Of a stretch of DNA of 64,000 nucleotides, positions 3,386-22,775 are shown piece after piece. The DNA is from Solirubrobacter pauli (GTDB lineage: Bacteria; Actinomycetota; Thermoleophilia; Solirubrobacterales; Solirubrobacteraceae). The notes beneath the pieces are model-generated. The model made no database searches. It was given only the letters and a program-made list of their open reading frames with translations, and was not told the DNA's origin. Position 1 is the first letter of the stretch. Each line of letters begins with the position of its first letter. Where the stretch lies: positions 3,147,426 to 3,211,425 of the forward strand of contig NZ_RBIL01000001.1 of assembly GCF_003633755.1 (NCBI RefSeq), read 5' to 3'. Position numbers and translations under genes: made by a program.

Positions 3386-4645
3386 CTAGCGCTTAGACCA
3401 CTCGATCTGGGTTGAGCGGTGGAACGGCACGCCAAGGCCCTCGAGGAACGCGCCGTGGGCGCCAAGACGCGCCCGGAAGTCCTCCCAGCCCCGGCGTCCC
3501 GACCAGCCGACCTCGGCCGTCGCGAGCAGGCGCGGGAAGACCATCGAGTCGACGTGCTCGCGCGTCTCGGTCGTCTCCGACCACAGCGCCGCCTCGACGC
3601 CCAGCACCTGCGCGCCGTCGATCACGGCCTCCGGGTCCCACTCGTACGCGTCGCGCACGTCGACCGCGCCCGCCCACGTGAGGCCGAGCTCGGTCGTCTC
3701 GTCGTACTTCTGGTCCAGGTACGTGTGCGGCGCGGGGGACATGATCAGCGGCAGGCCCTGCTCGGCCGCGGCCCGCGCGGGCTTCGCGTCGGACCAGTGC
3801 TGCACAATCGTGCCGGGCGGGAGCTTGGCCACGCCGGCCTCCTCCCAGACGATCGGCCGCTTGCCGTGCTCGACCACGAGCGAGCACGCGTCCCACATGA
3901 ACTGCACGTAGTCATCGTGCGAGAGGCCCTCGACCTCGTCGCCGCCGAGGTGGACGTACTCGCCCGGGAGGGCGCGGATCACGTCCGCGAGGAAGCGGTG
4001 CACGACCTCCGAGCGGACGTCGAGCGAGTGGCCGGGGCTGCTCCAGGTGGTGAACGGCTCCGGCGCGTCCTTGCCCCACAGCTCCGGGTAGGCGCGCAGC
4101 GCGGCGTTGACGTGGCCGGGCACGTCGACCTCCGGGATGACCGTGATCGAGTGGCGCGCCGCGTGGTCGACGATCCGCTGGTAGTCCGCGGCCGTGAAGA
4201 ACCCGCCGGCGCCGCCGCCGACCTGCGTCTCCGCGCCGATCGTCGTCAGCTTCGGCCAGCCGGGGACCTCGATCCGCCAGCCCTGGTCGTCGGTCAGGTG
4301 GACGTGGAAGACGTTGAGCTTGTACAGCGCGGCGAGGTCGATCAGCCGCAGCACGTCGTCGACGCCGAAGAAGTGGCGGGCGACGTCGAGCATCAGCCCG
4401 CGCCAGGGGTACTTCGGGGCGTCCTCGATCAGCAGCGGCGTGGACGTCGTGCCCAGTTGACGCAGGGTCGCGCGACCGCGGGCCTCGCCGGCCGCGTCGG
4501 CGGCGCTGAAGGCCACGCCCGACGCGCCGATCTCCAACCGGTAGCTCTCGGCCGCGCCGTCCGTGCGCGTGCACTCGACGTCGGCCGGCAGGCCGACCGG
4601 ATCGCCCGGCCGCGCCTCGAGCACGGCCGGGACCGGGATCAGCAC
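3386..4645 (-). CDS. Beta-N-acetylhexosaminidase, GH20 family
   Basis: Glycoside hydrolase family 20 enzyme, 419 aa, releasing terminal N-acetylglucosamine or N-acetylgalactosamine. A short N-terminal GH20b-like domain leads into the TIM barrel at PWRGLMLDVARHFF (about residue 80). The HLTDDQGWR strand and the catalytic pair in HLGGDEVEG (Asp236-Glu237) are intact. A C-terminal WSET motif fits the substrate-binding tryptophans. No signal peptide is visible, so it probably acts in the cytoplasm on imported or recycled amino sugars. It starts with GTG directly after the TAA stop of the small basic protein gene upstream, so the two are surely co-transcribed. Confidence 0.93.
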   Translation of the reverse strand: MLIPVPAVLEARPGDPVGLPADVECTRTDGAAESYRLEIGASGVAFSAADAAGEARGRATLRQLGTTSTPLLIEDAPKYPWRGLMLDVARHFFGVDDVLRLIDLAALYKLNVFHVHLTDDQGWRIEVPGWPKLTTIGAETQVGGGAGGFFTAADYQRIVDHAARHSITVIPEVDVPGHVNAALRAYPELWGKDAPEPFTTWSSPGHSLDVRSEVVHRFLADVIRALPGEYVHLGGDEVEGLSHDDYVQFMWDACSLVVEHGKRPIVWEEAGVAKLPPGTIVQHWSDAKPARAAAEQGLPLIMSPAPHTYLDQKYDETTELGLTWAGAVDVRDAYEWDPEAVIDGAQVLGVEAALWSETTETREHVDSMVFPRLLATAEVGWSGRRGWEDFRARLGAHGAFLEGLGVPFHRSTQIEWSKR

Positions 4646-4909
4646 TTAGGCAGGAGTGGGCTCGCCGCCCCCGCGCCCCTTGACGACCTTGGTCGCCACG
4701 AGCGCGGCCACACCGGCACCGACGACGACCGGAATCCGCTTCACGATCGGCGTCTTCTTCGCCACCTTGTAGACGGCGGTGCCCTTCGCGGCCTTCTTGG
4801 CGCCCTTCGCGCCGCCCTTCGCCGCCTTCGTGGCGGTCTTGATCTTCAGGTAGTCGACCGCAAGCTCAGCGACCTGCTGCTTGCGGCTCTTCTGCTTTCT
4901 CAGGGCCAT
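4646..4909 (-). CDS. Small Lys/Ala-rich protein with one hydrophobic segment
   Basis: Hypothetical protein of 87 aa. The first 55 residues are highly basic and alanine-rich, with KGAKKAAKG-type repeats resembling H1/HU-tail sequences. A hydrophobic stretch of about 18 residues (VVVGAGVAALVATKVV) follows, then a short Gly/Glu/Pro tail. It may be a small membrane-anchored protein with a cytoplasmic basic arm that could bind nucleic acid or acidic lipid; this is inference from composition only. It lies 18 bp downstream of the pyrophosphatase gene and abuts the GH20 gene. Strand, codon phase and tight packing support it as a real gene. Confidence 0.6.
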   Translation of the reverse strand: MALRKQKSRKQQVAELAVDYLKIKTATKAAKGGAKGAKKAAKGTAVYKVAKKTPIVKRIPVVVGAGVAALVATKVVKGRGGGEPTPA

Positions 4910-4927
4910 CTGGGGACAGTACCCCCT

Positions 4928-6559
4928 CTACAGCGCAGCAAGCACCTTTGGCGCGACCTGCTTCTTGCGGCTCATCACGCCCGGCAGCGGGATCACGTTC
5001 TCCACCGCCGCCTGGCCGAAGGCCTGCTCGAGCGGACCCGGATCGCCGCTCACGTACAGGTCCGTGTCCTTGGCGAGGATGTCCGTGACCATCAGCGCGT
5101 AGATCGGGTAGCCGTTGCGCTCGCGGACGCGCCGCATCGCCTCCATCAGCTCCGGCTTGCGGCCGTCGAGGCCCTGGCCGACGGTCTCGACCTGGGCGAT
5201 CCCGATCGTGTGCCCGCCGCCGACCTCGTACTCCTTGAGGTCACGCGAGACGATCGCGTCGGCCTCGACGCCCTCGAGGTCCGACGTGGCCTCGAACATC
5301 TCGCGCCCGAACTGCATCGGGTCGATCGCGAGCACGCGGCCGAGGTACTCGACGGCGCTCCAGTCGCGCTCGGTCGTCGTCGGGGAGTTGAGGATGACCG
5401 TGTCCGACATGATCGCGCCGAGCAGCAGCAGCGCGGAGGAGCGGCTCGGCTCCATGCCGTTCTGGCGGAAGCGCTCGATCACGAGCGTGGACGTCGAGCC
5501 GACGGGGTCGAACGTCGCGCGGACCGGCACGGTCGTCTCGATCGAGCCGATGTGGTGGTGGTCGAGGATCTCGACGATCTCGGCCTGCTCGACGCCCTCG
5601 ACGCTCTGCGCCTGCTCGGCGTGGTCGACGAGCAGCACGCGGCGCGGACGCGGCGACACGAGGTCGGTGCGCGTCACGAGCCCGATCGGCTTGCGCTTGG
5701 CGTCCACGGCCACGGCGGCGCGGTAGTGGACCTCCTTGACCTCGTCGGCGACGTCCGACAGCAGGTCGTCCGGGCGGACCGTGAGCGGCTCGGGGTCCAT
5801 CAGCGCCCGGCACGGGGCCGACAGCGTGATCATGCGCGCCGTGACGTAGGAGTCCAGGGGCGAGGTGACCACGGGCACGCCGTGCTGGGAGGCGAGCGCG
5901 ACGGTGTCGGCGTCGGGGCGCGTGCCGTTGGACACCACGAGCAGGCCGACGCCGAGCTCGATCGCCGCGCGCTGCGCGTCGTCGCGGTTGCCGACGACGG
6001 CGACGTCGCCCGGACCGATCTCCGACGGGAGCGCGCCGATGTCCATCGCCATGCACCAGATCTGGCCCGAGACCTCCTCGTCGCCGCTGCCGCTGAGGGT
6101 CTCGCCCTGCAGGACCTTGACGATCGCGCTCACGCGCGTGGGCGCGTCCAGCTCCGACGGCTCGCGCGACTCGCGGATGTAGCGGCGGGCGAGCGCCCGC
6201 TCGGTCATCACGCCCGACAGCGTGCCGTCCGGCCCGACGATCGGCACGAGGTCGAGGTCCTGGCGCGCCATCAGGCGACCGACCTCCCGCACCGGCTCGG
6301 TCGACTCCACGAGCGGGGAGTCCTGGCGCATCACGTCACGCACCCGCAGCATCACGTGCGCGAGGAAGTCGGGCTCCGAGGCCTTCGAGCGGTCCAGCAC
6401 CCAGCGCGTCTGGGTGTTCACCTCGCCCAGCCGGACGGGGACGTACGCGTTGTGCGGATCCACGCGGCCCATGAGCTCGGCGTAGCCGACCGCGGCGGCG
6501 ATCGAGTCGGTGTCCGGGTTGCGATGCCCGGTGACGTAGATGACGGGTAGAGCGGCGAT
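4928..6559 (-). CDS. Putative manganese-dependent inorganic pyrophosphatase with CBS and DRTGG domains (DHH family)
   Basis: DHH-family phosphoesterase of the CBS-containing PpaC type, which hydrolyses pyrophosphate and is usually regulated by adenine nucleotides bound at the CBS pair. In order: N-terminal metal-binding loop GHRNPDTDSI, first CBS (VRDVMRQDSPLV), DRTGG-like domain, second CBS (CRALMDPEPLTV), DHH motif (EILDHHHIGSI) and DHHA2 domain (GGHTIGIAQVE). The first in-frame ATG (6472) lies after the metal-binding loop, so it cannot be the true start. Between the loop and an in-frame TGA at 6566-6568 there is no ATG, GTG, TTG or CTG. The ATC at 6557-6559 lies 8 nt after a TATATT box and is the best candidate. 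A frameshift or assembly error remains possible. Confidence 0.85.
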   Translation of the reverse strand: MAALPVIYVTGHRNPDTDSIAAAVGYAELMGRVDPHNAYVPVRLGEVNTQTRWVLDRSKASEPDFLAHVMLRVRDVMRQDSPLVESTEPVREVGRLMARQDLDLVPIVGPDGTLSGVMTERALARRYIRESREPSELDAPTRVSAIVKVLQGETLSGSGDEEVSGQIWCMAMDIGALPSEIGPGDVAVVGNRDDAQRAAIELGVGLLVVSNGTRPDADTVALASQHGVPVVTSPLDSYVTARMITLSAPCRALMDPEPLTVRPDDLLSDVADEVKEVHYRAAVAVDAKRKPIGLVTRTDLVSPRPRRVLLVDHAEQAQSVEGVEQAEIVEILDHHHIGSIETTVPVRATFDPVGSTSTLVIERFRQNGMEPSRSSALLLLGAIMSDTVILNSPTTTERDWSAVEYLGRVLAIDPMQFGREMFEATSDLEGVEADAIVSRDLKEYEVGGGHTIGIAQVETVGQGLDGRKPELMEAMRRVRERNGYPIYALMVTDILAKDTDLYVSGDPGPLEQAFGQAAVENVIPLPGVMSRKKQVAPKVLAAL

Positions 6560-14918: not shown

Positions 14919-14981
14919 CGGCCGATGGTCTTCCCTTAAGTGTTCACTCAAGGCCCCCAAGAGATTGCCGATGATACGAGG

Positions 14982-16975
<1,994 letters not shown>

Positions 16976-16979
<4 letters not shown>

Positions 16980-19207: not shown

Positions 19208-20089
19208 CTACGGGGCGACGTACCGGGACCGGACCACGCGCTTGGCCGTGGCGTCGGTGGCGATCCAGCGCAGGAAGCGCGCCAGCGCGGGTCTCGGCTT
19301 GCCGCGGGTGACGAAGCCGAGCGTGCGTCGCGCCGGGTAGCGGCCGTCCTTGAGCGTCGCGCGCGTGCACGCGATGCCCTCGTAGGGAACGGCGTGCAGC
19401 CGGCGGGCGAACTCGAGGTCCACGTAGCCGAACGCCGCGGGCGTGGCCGCGACGAAGTCCCGCACCTGGGCGGACGCGGTGAAGGTGGTCGCGGGGGCGA
19501 GCGGGGTGCTGAGGTCGACGAACGTGGTCAGGAACACGTTGCGCGCGGCGGACGTGACGTCGAACGCGACCCGGGCGATGGGGGCGGTGCCGGCGGCGCC
19601 CGGCACCTCGGCCCAGGTGGAGATCGTCCCGGCGGCGAGCGCCTGGACCTGCGCGTGCGTGAGGTTGGGCACGCGGTTGGCGGGGTTGGTGACGAGGCAG
19701 ATCGCGCTCAGGGCGAGCGGCGTGAACGTCAGGCCCGGCGGGTCGCCGGCGGTCAGCGCGCGGCCGGAGAGCCCGGCGTCGACGATCCCGCGCGCCGCGT
19801 CCGCGATCCCCGTCCCGGTCCCGCCGCCCACGAGCGAGAACCGCGGGGCGTCGGCGTGCTCGCGGCGGTAGAAGTACGCGAGGTCCGCCACCACGGCCTG
19901 GGCGGGGCTCGCGCCGCTCATCGTGATCGTGCGCGCCGCGCCGGTCGCCGGCGGCGGCGTGAGGAGGAGAGCTGCGACCGCCGCCGGCCCGAGCAGGCGG
20001 CGCGCACGCTTGAGGACCGCCCGCGGGGCGCCGCCGCTCGCCGCCGCGTGTTCGGCGGCGGCGCCCCGGGAACGGGTCAGCCGACCCAT
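19208..20089 (-). CDS. PstS-like phosphate-type substrate-binding protein
   Basis: Periplasmic-binding-fold protein of about 293 aa. After a basic N-terminus and signal segment (PAAVAALLLTPPPATGA), the SGASPAQAVV and GGGTGTGIADAARG motifs correspond to the anion-binding loops of PstS-like proteins. TFTPLALSAICLVTNPANRVPNLT and the IAFVTRGKPRP-type end also fit. It has no PstC/A/B neighbours. Its start overlaps the end of the subtilase gene by 13 bp, so the two are translationally coupled. Substrate could be phosphate or another oxyanion, or the protein may be a sensor. Confidence 0.75.
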   Translation of the reverse strand: MGRLTRSRGAAAEHAAASGGAPRAVLKRARRLLGPAAVAALLLTPPPATGAARTITMSGASPAQAVVADLAYFYRREHADAPRFSLVGGGTGTGIADAARGIVDAGLSGRALTAGDPPGLTFTPLALSAICLVTNPANRVPNLTHAQVQALAAGTISTWAEVPGAAGTAPIARVAFDVTSAARNVFLTTFVDLSTPLAPATTFTASAQVRDFVAATPAAFGYVDLEFARRLHAVPYEGIACTRATLKDGRYPARRTLGFVTRGKPRPALARFLRWIATDATAKRVVRSRYVAP

Positions 20090-21429
20090 GCCGACCCTCC
20101 GATCCCGCCGCCGGAGCCGACGTTGCGCTTGCCCGCGCGGACGGCGCGGATGCGGCTCGTCGTGCGCGACAGGCGACGGCCGTCGGCGGCGAACGCCTCG
20201 ACGGTGAGGCGCTTGCCCGTGCGGCCCCGCACGCGGACGTTCAGCACGCTGCGGCCGCCGCGGAGCGTGGCGGCGGTGCGGCGGTCGACCTTGACGACGA
20301 CGCGGCTGACGGCCGCGACGGCGCCGACGATCGCCAGCTGGGCCTGGGTGGTGCGGCCGCTGCGGGTGGCGCTGAGCACGCGCACGGCGGGCGGCTGGTT
20401 GCGGTCGTAGCTGGACGCCTCGCTGGCGGCGAGCACCGCACCGAGCGCGTCGACGTAGCCGGCGCTCACCGGCAGCGAGGCGCGCTCGGCGTGCTGGAGC
20501 AGCAGCGCGCGCAGGTCGGCGGCCGGCAGGTTGGGCGCGACGGCCGCCATCAACGCGGCGACGCCCGCCACGTGCGGCGCGGCCATCGACGTGCCCGACT
20601 TGTACTCGTAGCCGCCGCTCTTGGAGGTCGAGATGACCTCGACGCCAGGCGCGGCGACCGGGACGGTGAGCCGGCCGTAGTTGGAGAAGTCGGGCAGGTC
20701 GCGGCCGTCGTCGGGCTCCGTCGCCGCCACGCCGACGACGTTCGGCGCGGGGATCGACACGGGGAAGACGGGCTTTCGATCGACGTCGATCCCGCTGTTG
20801 CCGGCCGAGCAGACGATCAGCGCGTTGGCGGCCGCGGCAGCGTCGACCGCGGCGCGCATGCGCGGGTCGTCGGTGTCGCCCTCGAGGCTGAGGTTGATGA
20901 TCCGCGCGCCGTTCGCGGCCGCGTAGCGGATGCCCTCGGCGACGGCGCCGGTGGTGCCTGCGCCGCTGTCGTCGAGCACCTTGACCGTCATCAGCTTCGC
21001 CCGGTACGCGACCCCGACCACGCCGCGGTTGTTCGCCGCCGCCGCGATCGTGCCGGCCACGTGCGTGCCGTGCCCGAGCCCGTCGTGCAGGTCCTGGCCG
21101 GTACGGCTGCTGGTCAGGTCCACGCCGTGCACGTCGTCCACGTAGCCGTTGTTGTCGTCGTCGACGCCGTTGCCCGGCACCTCGGCGAAGTTCGTCCAGG
21201 CGTTGGGGGCGAGGTCGGGGTGGTCCAGCTTCATGCCCGAGTCGACGACCGCGACGGTCACGCCCGCGCCCGCCGAGAGCTGCCACGCGCCCGGGAGGTC
21301 GAACACGGTGGCGGGCGCGATCGCCCACTGCTCGCCCTGGAGCGCGTCGGTCGGTGCGGCGTATGTGGGTCCGGCGAACGCGACGACCATCGCTCCGGCG
21401 ACGGCCAGGAAAGCGGTACGGCGAGGCAC
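20077..21429 (-). CDS. Secreted subtilisin-like serine protease (S8)
   Basis: Exported protease of about 450 aa with an intact triad: Asp in VAVVDSGMKLDHPDL, His in GLGHGTHVAGTIAAAA and Ser in SGTSMAAPHVAGVAA. Asp/Asn-rich GVDDDNNGYVDDVHG is a calcium-binding loop. A basic beta-sandwich C-terminus (about residues 345-445) follows. The ribosome-binding site AGGAGGTG lies 6 nt before the GTG at 21429 and overlaps the in-frame GTG at 21438, so 21429 is the true start, giving a signal peptide that begins PRRTAFLAVAG. The next gene, PstS-like, overlaps its end by 13 bp. Confidence 0.92.
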   Translation of the reverse strand: MPRRTAFLAVAGAMVVAFAGPTYAAPTDALQGEQWAIAPATVFDLPGAWQLSAGAGVTVAVVDSGMKLDHPDLAPNAWTNFAEVPGNGVDDDNNGYVDDVHGVDLTSSRTGQDLHDGLGHGTHVAGTIAAAANNRGVVGVAYRAKLMTVKVLDDSGAGTTGAVAEGIRYAAANGARIINLSLEGDTDDPRMRAAVDAAAAANALIVCSAGNSGIDVDRKPVFPVSIPAPNVVGVAATEPDDGRDLPDFSNYGRLTVPVAAPGVEVISTSKSGGYEYKSGTSMAAPHVAGVAALMAAVAPNLPAADLRALLLQHAERASLPVSAGYVDALGAVLAASEASSYDRNQPPAVRVLSATRSGRTTQAQLAIVGAVAAVSRVVVKVDRRTAATLRGGRSVLNVRVRGRTGKRLTVEAFAADGRRLSRTTSRIRAVRAGKRNVGSGGGIGGSAWVG

Positions 21430-21464
21430 TTTGGCCACCTCCTGCTCAGCCGCAACCTACCGCT

Positions 21465-21495
21465 TTGGATGTTCTTCCTGTCAACCCGTTAGGGT
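21465..21495 (+). promoter_or_regulatory. Promoter for a leaderless transcript of the permuted OpuAC gene
   Basis: TTGGAT (21465-21470) and TAGGGT (21490-21495) are separated by 19 bp, and the ATG begins 6 nt after the -10 box. No ribosome-binding site precedes the ATG, so the mRNA probably starts at or next to it. Confidence 0.55.
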
Positions 21496-21501
21496 CGGTC
21501 C

Positions 21502-22410
21502 ATGCGGAGGCTCGCGATCGTCCTGACGTCGGTGGTTTGGCTGTTCACGGCGCCCGCGCAGGCGCAGGAGGTGCGGCTGGCGGCACCGTCCGACTGCCTG
21601 ACCAATACGGGGTGTGGCCTTGGGTTGAAGTCCGCATACGGACTCGACGTGCGCTCCGCGTTCGTGCCGCTCACGGTCGCCGACGCCGGCATCTCCGCGC
21701 TCGACGACGGCACCGCCGAGATCGCCGTCGCGTTCTCCTCCAACCCGCAGGTCTCGCGCCCGGACATCGTTACCCTCCGCGACGACCGCTCGATGATCTA
21801 CCCCGACCGGGTCGTGCCCGCGGTCCGTCGCGGGCTGCTGCGGTCCTACGGCTCCCGCGCGAAGGAGATCCGCAAGCGGCTGAACGGCGCCTCGGCCGCG
21901 CTCAACACGCTCGCGCTGCGCGGCCTGAACCAGTCCGTGATCGACGGTCGGCTGCCCGAGGCGGTCGGTGGCGAGTTCGTCGACGCGAACGGCCTCGGCG
22001 GGACGGCGAAGCGCAAGCCGGGCAAGCGGATCGTCGTCGGCTTCATGGACTTCGACGAGAACGAGACGCTCGCGCACCTGTACGCCGAGGCGCTGCGGGC
22101 GGGTGGGTTCCGCGTGGTCGTGCGGAGCGTCCGCGGGCTGCGTCCCGAGGCCGTGCGCAAGCTGCGCCGCGACCAGATCGACCTCTACCCCGCGTACGAC
22201 GGCTCGCTGCTGCGCTACCTGGTCGGCACGTCGCCGGAGCGGCTGAAGGCGGGCCTGCGGCGCACGCTCGCGCGGATCGACGTCGAGCCGATGCGTCTCT
22301 CGCGCGCCCAGGACAGCAACGTGTTCGTGACCAAGACCGAGACCGCTTCACGGCTCGGCATCGCCAAGCTCTCCGACCTCGCGCGCTACTGGCAGGCTGC
22401 CGGTTCGTGA
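21502..22410 (+). CDS. Osmoprotectant-type (OpuAC) substrate-binding protein with swapped lobe order
   Basis: Exported protein of 302 aa (signal peptide ends AQAQE). It carries both halves of an OpuAC glycine-betaine/choline-binding domain, but in reverse order. Residues about 25-130 match the usual C-terminal lobe (CGLGLKSAYGLDVRSAFVPL ... AEIAVAFSSNPQV ... VVPAVRRGLL). Residues about 170-295 match the usual N-terminal lobe (VGFMDFDENETLAHLYAEAL ... IDLYPAYDGSLLRYL ... TETASRLGIAKLSDLARY). This suggests circular permutation, or loss of the outer halves of a tandem duplication. No permease or ATPase is adjacent. It has a promoter for a leaderless start. Confidence 0.8.
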   Translation: MRRLAIVLTSVVWLFTAPAQAQEVRLAAPSDCLTNTGCGLGLKSAYGLDVRSAFVPLTVADAGISALDDGTAEIAVAFSSNPQVSRPDIVTLRDDRSMIYPDRVVPAVRRGLLRSYGSRAKEIRKRLNGASAALNTLALRGLNQSVIDGRLPEAVGGEFVDANGLGGTAKRKPGKRIVVGFMDFDENETLAHLYAEALRAGGFRVVVRSVRGLRPEAVRKLRRDQIDLYPAYDGSLLRYLVGTSPERLKAGLRRTLARIDVEPMRLSRAQDSNVFVTKTETASRLGIAKLSDLARYWQAAGS

Positions 22411-22775
22411 GCCGCGAGCTCGACCGCGTCCGAGCCCTCTGCCTCGCGCTGCCCGAGGTGACCGAGCGGCTCAGCCACGGCGCGCCCGCCTGGTTCGTGC
22501 GCGGCAAGAAGACGTTCGTGATGTTCCTGGCCGACCATCACGGAGACGGTCGGCTCGCGCTGTGGTGCGCGGCGCCGCGGGGCATGCAGGAGGCGCTCGT
22601 CGCAGCCGAGCCCGAGCACTACTTCCGCCCGCCATACGTCGGCCATCGCGGCTGGATCGGCGTGCAGCTCGACACCGGCCTGGACTGGGACGCGGTCGCG
22701 GGCGCGGTCGAGGACGCGTACGCGGAGGTCGCGCCTACCTCCCTTGTCGAGCGCGCTGCTCGAAGAGCTCCGTGA
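22407..22775 (+). CDS. MmcQ/YjbR family protein
   Basis: Protein of 122 aa with the MmcQ/YjbR double-wing fold: VRALCLALPEVTERLSHGAPAWFVRGKKTFV at the N-terminus and the VGHRGWIGVQLD segment near residue 86. The family is often annotated as DNA-binding, but its role is poorly defined. The GTG overlaps the TGA of the OpuAC-like gene (GTGA), so the two are coupled. Its last 41 bp overlap the convergent phosphoesterase gene. Confidence 0.85.
   Translation: MSRELDRVRALCLALPEVTERLSHGAPAWFVRGKKTFVMFLADHHGDGRLALWCAAPRGMQEALVAAEPEHYFRPPYVGHRGWIGVQLDTGLDWDAVAGAVEDAYAEVAPTSLVERAARRAP

What the first reader, a model, noticed from the sequence alone, without database searches (positions are those of the whole stretch)
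21502..22410. OpuAC substrate-binding protein with its two lobes in swapped order
Motifs of the usual C-terminal lobe (GLKSAYGL, AVAFSSNPQV, VVPAVR) come before those of the usual N-terminal lobe (DFDENETLAHLYAEAL, IDLYPAYDGSLLRYL, KTETASRLGIAKLSDLA). This looks like a true circular permutation or the middle of a collapsed tandem duplication. It has its own promoter and no transporter partners, so it may be a sensor or a spare binding protein.
Basis: partly seen in the sequence, partly recalled or inferred. Interest (0 to 1): 0.75.

Follow-up and report, generated by a model that had tools for sequence, protein, structure and literature searches.

The report
Rearranged binding protein tied to protease
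A soil bacterium (Solirubrobacter) secretes a small-molecule-binding protein whose two sequence halves really are in swapped order; swaps of this kind have happened several times in related actinobacteria, and here the protein has left its transporter and travels with, or is fused to, a secreted protein-cutting enzyme.

Summary
ORF 21502-22410 (+, 302 aa) matches PF04069 (OpuAC) in swapped order: residues 38-161 fit profile 135-256 and 175-296 fit 1-111. Against a profile of canonical relatives only, the protein scores 85 bits in its best single stretch and 170 bits after rotation. The AlphaFold2 model (pLDDT 94.6) superposes end to end on B. subtilis OpuAC (Z 20.6; next family 10.5). OpuAC itself has this order, and permutation among betaine-binding proteins was reported in 2008. 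By sequence, however, the protein belongs to the AfProX/EgtUC/OsmF group, so its permutation is separate from OpuAC's. In that group in Actinomycetota, permutation is recurrent: three cut points, one origin rejected (AU p=4e-6), at least four order switches in every bootstrap tree. Most permuted relatives are SBPs of ABC operons. The window's clade is not: signal peptide, no lipobox, no transporter, changed pocket. It is divergent from a subtilase lacking a recognised propeptide, which is followed by a PstS-like binding protein. Relatives carry OpuAC-subtilase, subtilase-PstS-like and VWA-OpuAC fusions. Best reading: a transport SBP that lost its transporter and became a secreted partner of a protease. 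Ligand and mechanism are untested.

The parts
21502..22410 (+). Circularly permuted OpuAC/ProX-type substrate-binding protein, 302 aa; Sec-type signal peptide (aa 1-21), no lipobox cysteine
   Evidence: ORF; PF04069 in swapped order; rotated profile test; AF2 model pLDDT 94.6
21568..21996 (+). Usual C-terminal half (aa 23-165), here first; holds most of lobe D2 and the second part of D1
   Evidence: Pfam positions 135-256; matches EgtUC residues 155-274
21997..22023 (+). Linker joining the old C-terminus to the old N-terminus (aa 166-174, GGTAKRKPG)
   Evidence: Lobe HMM borders, alignment A3
22024..22392 (+). Usual N-terminal half (aa 175-297), here last; ends at the helix ...KLSDLARYW
   Evidence: Pfam positions 1-111; matches AfProX residues 5-134
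21439..21501 (.). 63-bp divergent intergenic region shared with the subtilase gene; conserved block CCTACC..TTTGGATGTTC..TGTCAACC..TAGGGT-N5/6-ATG, read as overlapping promoters
   Evidence: Alignment of five Solirubrobacter sequences (four species), A5; promoter function is inference
20077..21438 (-). Secreted S8 subtilase, 453 aa, with the D/H/S catalytic motifs (VVDSG, HGTH, GTSMAAP) and no recognised I9 propeptide
   Evidence: PF00082 E 3e-53 and no other Pfam hit; motifs
19208..20089 (-). PstS-like secreted binding protein (PBP_like_2) directly after the subtilase; the true start may lie further inside
   Evidence: PF12849 E 6e-24; TIGR02136 below its cut-off
22407..22775 (+). YjbR-family gene whose start overlaps the stop of the OpuAC-like gene by 3-4 bases; probably co-transcribed, not conserved in the fused loci
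   Evidence: PF04237 E 1e-14; same overlap in G232/L034

Best explanation
The gene encodes a complete, confidently modelled, circularly permuted substrate-binding protein. The sequence halves of an AfProX/EgtUC/OsmF-type SBP are exchanged at the linker after the 'isDLa' helix (shown). The permutation arose inside an Actinomycetota SBP subfamily where such permutations are recurrent and apparently compatible with transport (shown for distribution and phylogeny; transport inferred from operons). In Solirubrobacter and two neighbouring genera the protein lost its transporter and lipid anchor and entered a secreted module with a subtilase and a PstS-like SBP (shown by synteny, co-occurrence and three kinds of fusion). 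Most likely mechanism (inferred): the secreted SBP fold still opens and closes on a small ligand that is not betaine, and acts as an accessory domain of the extracellular subtilase, either targeting it or making its activity, folding or stability depend on the ligand or surface bound. In two genera it is covalently the N-terminal domain of that protease.
For: Swapped order. Fold: pLDDT 94.6, Z 20.6 to B. subtilis OpuAC over 244 residues. Sequence kinship to AfProX/EgtUC/OsmF, not OpuAC: permuted-family profile E 6e-39 to EgtUC in two swapped stretches against 6e-4 to 2b4l in one colinear stretch; OsmF model. Recurrence: architectures, AU p 3.6e-6, 4e-47 without the long-branched clade, at least 4 switches in all 1000 bootstrap trees. 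Permuted relatives in ATPase-permease-permease-SBP operons. Module: L034, L045-L048, L104; OpuAC-S8 fusion in G270 and S. soli without an internal signal peptide; S8-PstS-like fusion in S. soli L149; VWA/SpaA-OpuAC fusion in L104. OpuAC and S8 orthologues are present or absent together in the genus, with G301 lacking both. Pocket change.
Against: No ligand, protease or binding data exist. Gene neighbourhood and fusion can reflect shared secretion or regulation and not a physical complex. S. soli also has an unlinked solo copy (L102) and a subtilase without OpuAC beside it (L149). The fused model gave pTM 0.45, so no domain contact can be claimed. Many subtilases lack I9, so the missing propeptide is weak evidence. 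Two of the seven genus genomes are the same strain (CPCC 204708), so co-occurrence rests on five lineages with and one without.
Confidence: 0.6

Rival explanations
1. Spare binding protein: it still binds a solute and feeds the one Opu-type transporter elsewhere in the genome in trans.
For: One canonical ATPase-permease-SBP operon exists on C2; permuted relatives are transport-type SBPs.
Against: No lipobox, so in a Gram-positive it would diffuse away; the canonical operon has its own SBP; pocket residues equivalent to AfProX K13, Y111, R149 and Y214 are M, N, N and D; synteny and fusions are with a protease, never with a permease, in this clade.
Confidence: 0.12
2. Foldase or inhibitor: the OpuAC-like protein replaces the missing propeptide and helps the subtilase fold or keeps it inactive, with ligand binding secondary or lost.
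For: The subtilase has no I9 hit and starts right after its signal peptide; in fusions the OpuAC domain sits where a propeptide would be; shared divergent promoter region.
Against: No known likeness between OpuAC folds and subtilase propeptides; S. soli has a subtilase of this group without an adjacent partner (L149); domain arrangement not resolved.
Confidence: 0.15
3. Decayed, non-binding leftover of a transport SBP that only rides along with the subtilase locus.
For: Long stem branch of the clade; changed pocket.
Against: Conserved across three genera down to 42-46% identity with Y63, N111, N149 and F190 equivalents invariant; high-confidence intact fold; duplicated and fused copies.
Confidence: 0.1
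4. Nothing was permuted in this lineage: it is simply a distant vertical member of the B. subtilis OpuAC type.
For: Same order and best structural match.
Against: Sequence places it in the AfProX/EgtUC/OsmF group; in the tree it nests among canonical N-C proteins, with OpuAC across a branch of 3.87 substitutions per site; no tryptophan prism, as the only Trp residues are W14 (signal peptide) and W297 (sequence).
Confidence: 0.03

Closest known systems
B. subtilis OpuAC (PDB 2B4L, 3CHG, 5NXX)
   Same: Same type II SBP fold and the same order of halves with about the same cut point; full-length colinear superposition
   Different: 14% identity; binds glycine betaine with a Trp prism that is absent here; part of an ABC transporter; belongs to another SBP branch
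AfProX (1SW1) / EgtUC (7TXL, 9EGH) / OsmF-YehZ group
   Same: Closest solved relatives by sequence, half by half
   Different: Canonical N-C order; quaternary-amine aromatic cage and Lys/Arg (AfProX, EgtUC); work in transporters
M. tuberculosis ProX (PMC5894108)
   Same: An actinobacterial ProX-like SBP that also lacks the aromatic cage and was reported to bind polyphenols, not betaine; precedent for a changed ligand
   Different: Sits in the proXVWZ operon; its order was not tested here
Circular permutation in glycine-betaine-binding proteins (CPSARST, PMC2395249)
   Same: Already reported permutation among 2B4L, 1R9L and 1SW1
   Different: A comparison of three structures, not the recurrent actinobacterial events or the protease-linked clade
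S8 subtilases, mycosin-like by NCBIfam
   Same: Partner protease has the S8 domain and catalytic motifs; best NCBIfam hit mycosin, below cut-off
   Different: Below the mycosin cut-off; linked to SBP folds; a type VII secretion context was not looked for systematically

Membership tests
PF04069 OpuAC superfamily | HMM match above the curated cut-off | tested here: met
   82.2 bits against 21.2
PF04069 OpuAC superfamily | Profile matched in profile order in one stretch | tested here: not met
   Two stretches in swapped order; 85 bits native, 170 bits rotated
Circular permutant of an SBP | Rotation restores a full-length colinear match and one compact fold is predicted | tested here: met
B. subtilis OpuAC type (Trp-prism betaine SBP) | Same order of halves | tested here: met
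   Colinear superposition of model residues 1-274 on 12-272, Z 20.6
B. subtilis OpuAC type (Trp-prism betaine SBP) | Tryptophan prism and sequence kinship | tested here: not met
   No Trp in the mature protein except W297; E 6e-4 against 6e-39 for EgtUC
AfProX/OpuC/EgtU cluster F-III quaternary-amine SBP | Aromatic cage (AfProX Y63, Y111, Y190, Y214) and K13/R149 | tested here: not met
   Window: Y, N, F, D for the cage and M, N for K13/R149; cage described in PMC9732360
Transport SBP of an ABC importer | Linked ATPase and permease genes | tested here: not met
   None in the flanks of the Solirubrobacter module loci or of G270 and L104; present for the wider permuted family
Transport SBP of an ABC importer | Lipid anchor, as usual in Gram-positives | tested here: not met
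   Signal peptide ...APAQA-QEV without cysteine (sequence); relatives L036/L037 have a lipobox
Transport SBP of an ABC importer | Binds and delivers a substrate | not testable with these tools
   Needs a binding or uptake assay
Partner of an S8 subtilase | Conserved linkage, fusion and co-occurrence | tested here: met
Partner of an S8 subtilase | Physical interaction or effect on activity | tested here: inconclusive
   Fused model pTM 0.45

The most novel reading that the evidence does not exclude
A three-part secreted module (permuted OpuAC-like SBP, propeptide-less subtilase, PstS-like SBP) in which transport-type binding folds act as ligand-sensing subunits of an extracellular protease, within an SBP subfamily whose chain order has been circularly permuted repeatedly at several cut points.
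Probability: 0.3. Interest if true: 0.75.

Novelty: new variant of a known kind. Interest (0 to 1): 0.55.

Why it matters
Natural circular permutations are usually seen as rare, old events. Here one SBP subfamily offers several apparently independent ones, at three cut points, next to unpermuted sisters. That is a direct test bed for how permutations arise and why binding proteins tolerate them, and it bears on the design of permuted biosensors. The protease-linked clade may show a transporter part being reused to control or aim a secreted enzyme.

Tried and rejected
(1) Frameshift or assembly artefact: rejected, since the same order is found in five Solirubrobacter species and other genera. 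(2) One permutation shared by all permuted actinobacterial SBPs: borderline on the first tree (AU p 0.042), clearly rejected with more rows and without long branches; half-by-half trees agree. (3) Leftover halves beside the gene as a trace of duplication: none found. (4) Fused-protein model for domain contacts: subtilase part poorly modelled, pTM 0.45, so not used. (5) Sigma-70 and terminator scan: nothing. (6) Literature on OpuAC-subtilase fusions: no paper in the open library; only CPSARST on permutation in betaine-binding proteins. (7) AfProX and the other N-C relatives score low in the fold comparison (1SW1 Z 10.0, 194 residues), probably because a sequential aligner can use only part of a permuted chain; this was not taken as a fold difference. 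(8) Foldseek against the viral library was not run, as it is irrelevant to a chromosomal SBP. (9) Grouping the type-2 permuted rows with the Solirubrobacter clade is not rejected (AU p 0.146), so the number of origins is given only as a minimum number of switches.

Full report
What is there. The ORF at 21502-22410 (+) encodes 302 aa with a Sec signal peptide (MRRLAIVLTSVVWLFTAPAQA-QEV) and no lipobox cysteine. Pfam PF04069 (OpuAC) matches well above its cut-off, but aa 175-296 fit profile positions 1-111 and aa 38-161 fit 135-256. PDB sequence hits show the same: the second half of EgtUC and OsmF aligns to aa 40-165, and the first half of AfProX aligns to aa 174-296. A profile built only from canonical relatives gives 85 bits for the best single stretch of the native protein and 170 bits when the protein is rotated; the profile rotated the other way covers the native protein in one 168-bit stretch. 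The swapped order is therefore real.

What 'swapped lobes' means. EgtUC lobe D1 is residues 233-331 plus 445-506 and D2 is 341-432 (PMC9732360). Mapped through the alignments, the cut lies inside D2, at the linker after the 'KTISDLKK' helix. The permuted chain therefore makes D1 continuous and splits D2 between the two termini. Sequence halves are exchanged, not structural lobes. The AlphaFold2 model has mean pLDDT 94.6 and pTM 0.90. Its best match among solved structures is B. subtilis OpuAC: Foldseek E 7e-11, VIA Z 20.6, 244 residues aligned over the full length, against Z at most 10.5 for every other family. That protein has the same order. Its own relative in L. lactis, 3L6G, does not: the two match in swapped halves. 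CPSARST reported circular permutation among betaine-binding proteins in 2008 (PMC2395249). The order as such is therefore known.

Kinship. By sequence the window protein is not an OpuAC of the Bacillus type. A profile of the permuted family hits EgtUC at 6e-39 in two swapped stretches and 2B4L at 6e-4 in one colinear stretch. The only NCBIfam hit is OsmF, below its cut-off. In the tree it nests inside a canonical actinobacterial group, while the Bacillus-type proteins lie across a branch of 3.87 substitutions per site. Its permutation therefore arose separately from OpuAC's, at about the same cut point.

Recurrent permutation. Lobe-specific HMMs sorted the relatives. Besides canonical N-C proteins there are type-1 permutants (C-N, cut at the half boundary: the Solirubrobacter clade, Patulibacter, Allobranchiibius, Pseudofrankia, Marmoricola, Nocardioides, Streptacidiphilus and several MAGs), type-2 permutants cut about 30 residues into the C half (L055, L057, L118, L122), one type-3 permutant cut about 63 residues in (L125), and tandem N-C-N-C domains fused to a permease (L010, L011). 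On a tree of concatenated halves put back into one order, permuted and canonical rows interleave within one supported 63-row clade. One origin of all permuted rows is rejected (AU p 3.6e-6), as is one origin of type 1 without the long-branched clade (p 4e-47). All 1000 bootstrap trees need at least four order switches, and half-only trees give the same picture at lower resolution. Reversal to canonical order cannot be told from fresh permutation, so only the number of switches is claimed. With few exceptions (such as the short contigs L050 and L117), the type-1 rows outside the Solirubrobacter clade and the type-2 and type-3 rows lie beside permease genes, and where flanks are long enough mostly in ATPase-permease-permease-SBP order. 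Permutation is evidently compatible with transport; that is an inference from the operons.

The window's clade. In Solirubrobacter (the window, S. phytolaccae, S. taibaiensis, S. deserti and S. soli) and in two other genera of the family (G270, G327) there is no transporter beside the gene. In the window it stands 63 bp from a divergent S8 subtilase (20077-21438), which is followed by a PstS-like binding protein (19208-20089); the S. phytolaccae contig ends before the PstS-like position. The divergent spacer is conserved in sequence in four species, with an actinobacterial-type TANNNT box 5-6 nt before the ATG, read as a leaderless promoter (inference). The subtilase has the three catalytic motifs and no I9 propeptide hit. 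In G270 and in one S. soli locus the permuted OpuAC domain is fused to the N-terminus of the subtilase with no signal peptide in between. In a second S. soli locus the subtilase is fused to a truncated PstS-like domain. In G327 a VWA/SpaA_4 protein carries a permuted OpuAC at its C-terminus, followed by a second permuted OpuAC gene, with PstS-like genes on both sides. Within the genus, OpuAC-like gene and subtilase orthologue are present or absent together; two of the records are the same strain, so the number of independent cases is small.

Ligand. The positions of the AfProX cage and carboxylate site (K13, Y63, T66, D109, Y111, R149, Y190, Y214) read M, Y, S, D, N, N, F, D in the window. Y63, N111, N149 and F190 are invariant in all nine members of the clade. 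The nearest canonical and permuted transport SBPs mostly share N111, F190 and D/E214 (or D111 and Q214) but nearly all keep R149. Betaine or choline binding is unlikely; a kept but different pocket is likely. M. tuberculosis ProX is a precedent for an actinobacterial ProX that ignores betaine (PMC5894108). The use of AfProX residue numbers as ligand contacts rests partly on recall; the equivalent EgtUC cage is cited above.

How it most likely works. Shown: a permuted, confidently modelled SBP fold; secretion signal without anchor; loss of the transporter; linkage and fusion to a protease and to a second SBP-type protein. Inferred: the SBP folds are accessory, ligand-responsive or targeting parts of an extracellular subtilase. 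A propeptide-like foldase role is the main alternative within the same frame. The fused model did not resolve domain contacts (pTM 0.45).

Verdict. The feature is a new variant of a known kind: a permuted SBP whose order has a precedent in B. subtilis OpuAC, but which arose separately in a subfamily with repeated permutations, and which has been recruited into a protease module for which no description was found in the open literature.

Noticed in passing
L055:6968-7822, L057:6980-7822, L118, L122, L125: Type-2 and type-3 circular permutants of the same SBP family, cut about 30 and about 63 residues into the C half, with the missing piece reattached at the C-terminus; next to permease genes.
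   Followed up: yes
L010:1018-2691, L011:1012-2706 (also L041): Permease fused to two tandem OpuAC units (N-C-N-C), the kind of intermediate from which a C-N protein could be cut out; they branch outside the permuted clades.
   Followed up: partly
L104:2212-4485: 757-aa protein with VWA and SpaA_4 (prealbumin-like) regions and a C-terminal permuted OpuAC domain; a second permuted OpuAC gene follows at 4486-5403 and PstS-like genes lie on both sides.
   Followed up: partly
L149:5506-7086: S. soli subtilase fused at its C-terminus to a truncated PstS-like domain, near a TSP3-bearing subtilase as in the window.
   Followed up: partly
window 14940-16979: Another secreted subtilase with a thrombospondin type 3 repeat, a syntenic neighbour of the module in Solirubrobacter.
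   Followed up: no
window 22407-22775: YjbR-family gene overlapping the stop of the OpuAC-like gene by 3-4 bases, conserved in G232; function in this context unknown.
   Followed up: no
L052:6992-8775, L053:6947-8878: Two tandem permuted SBP genes in one transporter operon in Allobranchiibius and Patulibacter.
   Followed up: no
G000:C2:1554334-1555323 (L038:5335-6324): The genome's only canonical Opu-type SBP, with ATPase and permeases; it keeps K13, Y63, R149, Y190 and Y214 equivalents (but N at Y111) and may bind a quaternary amine.
   Followed up: partly
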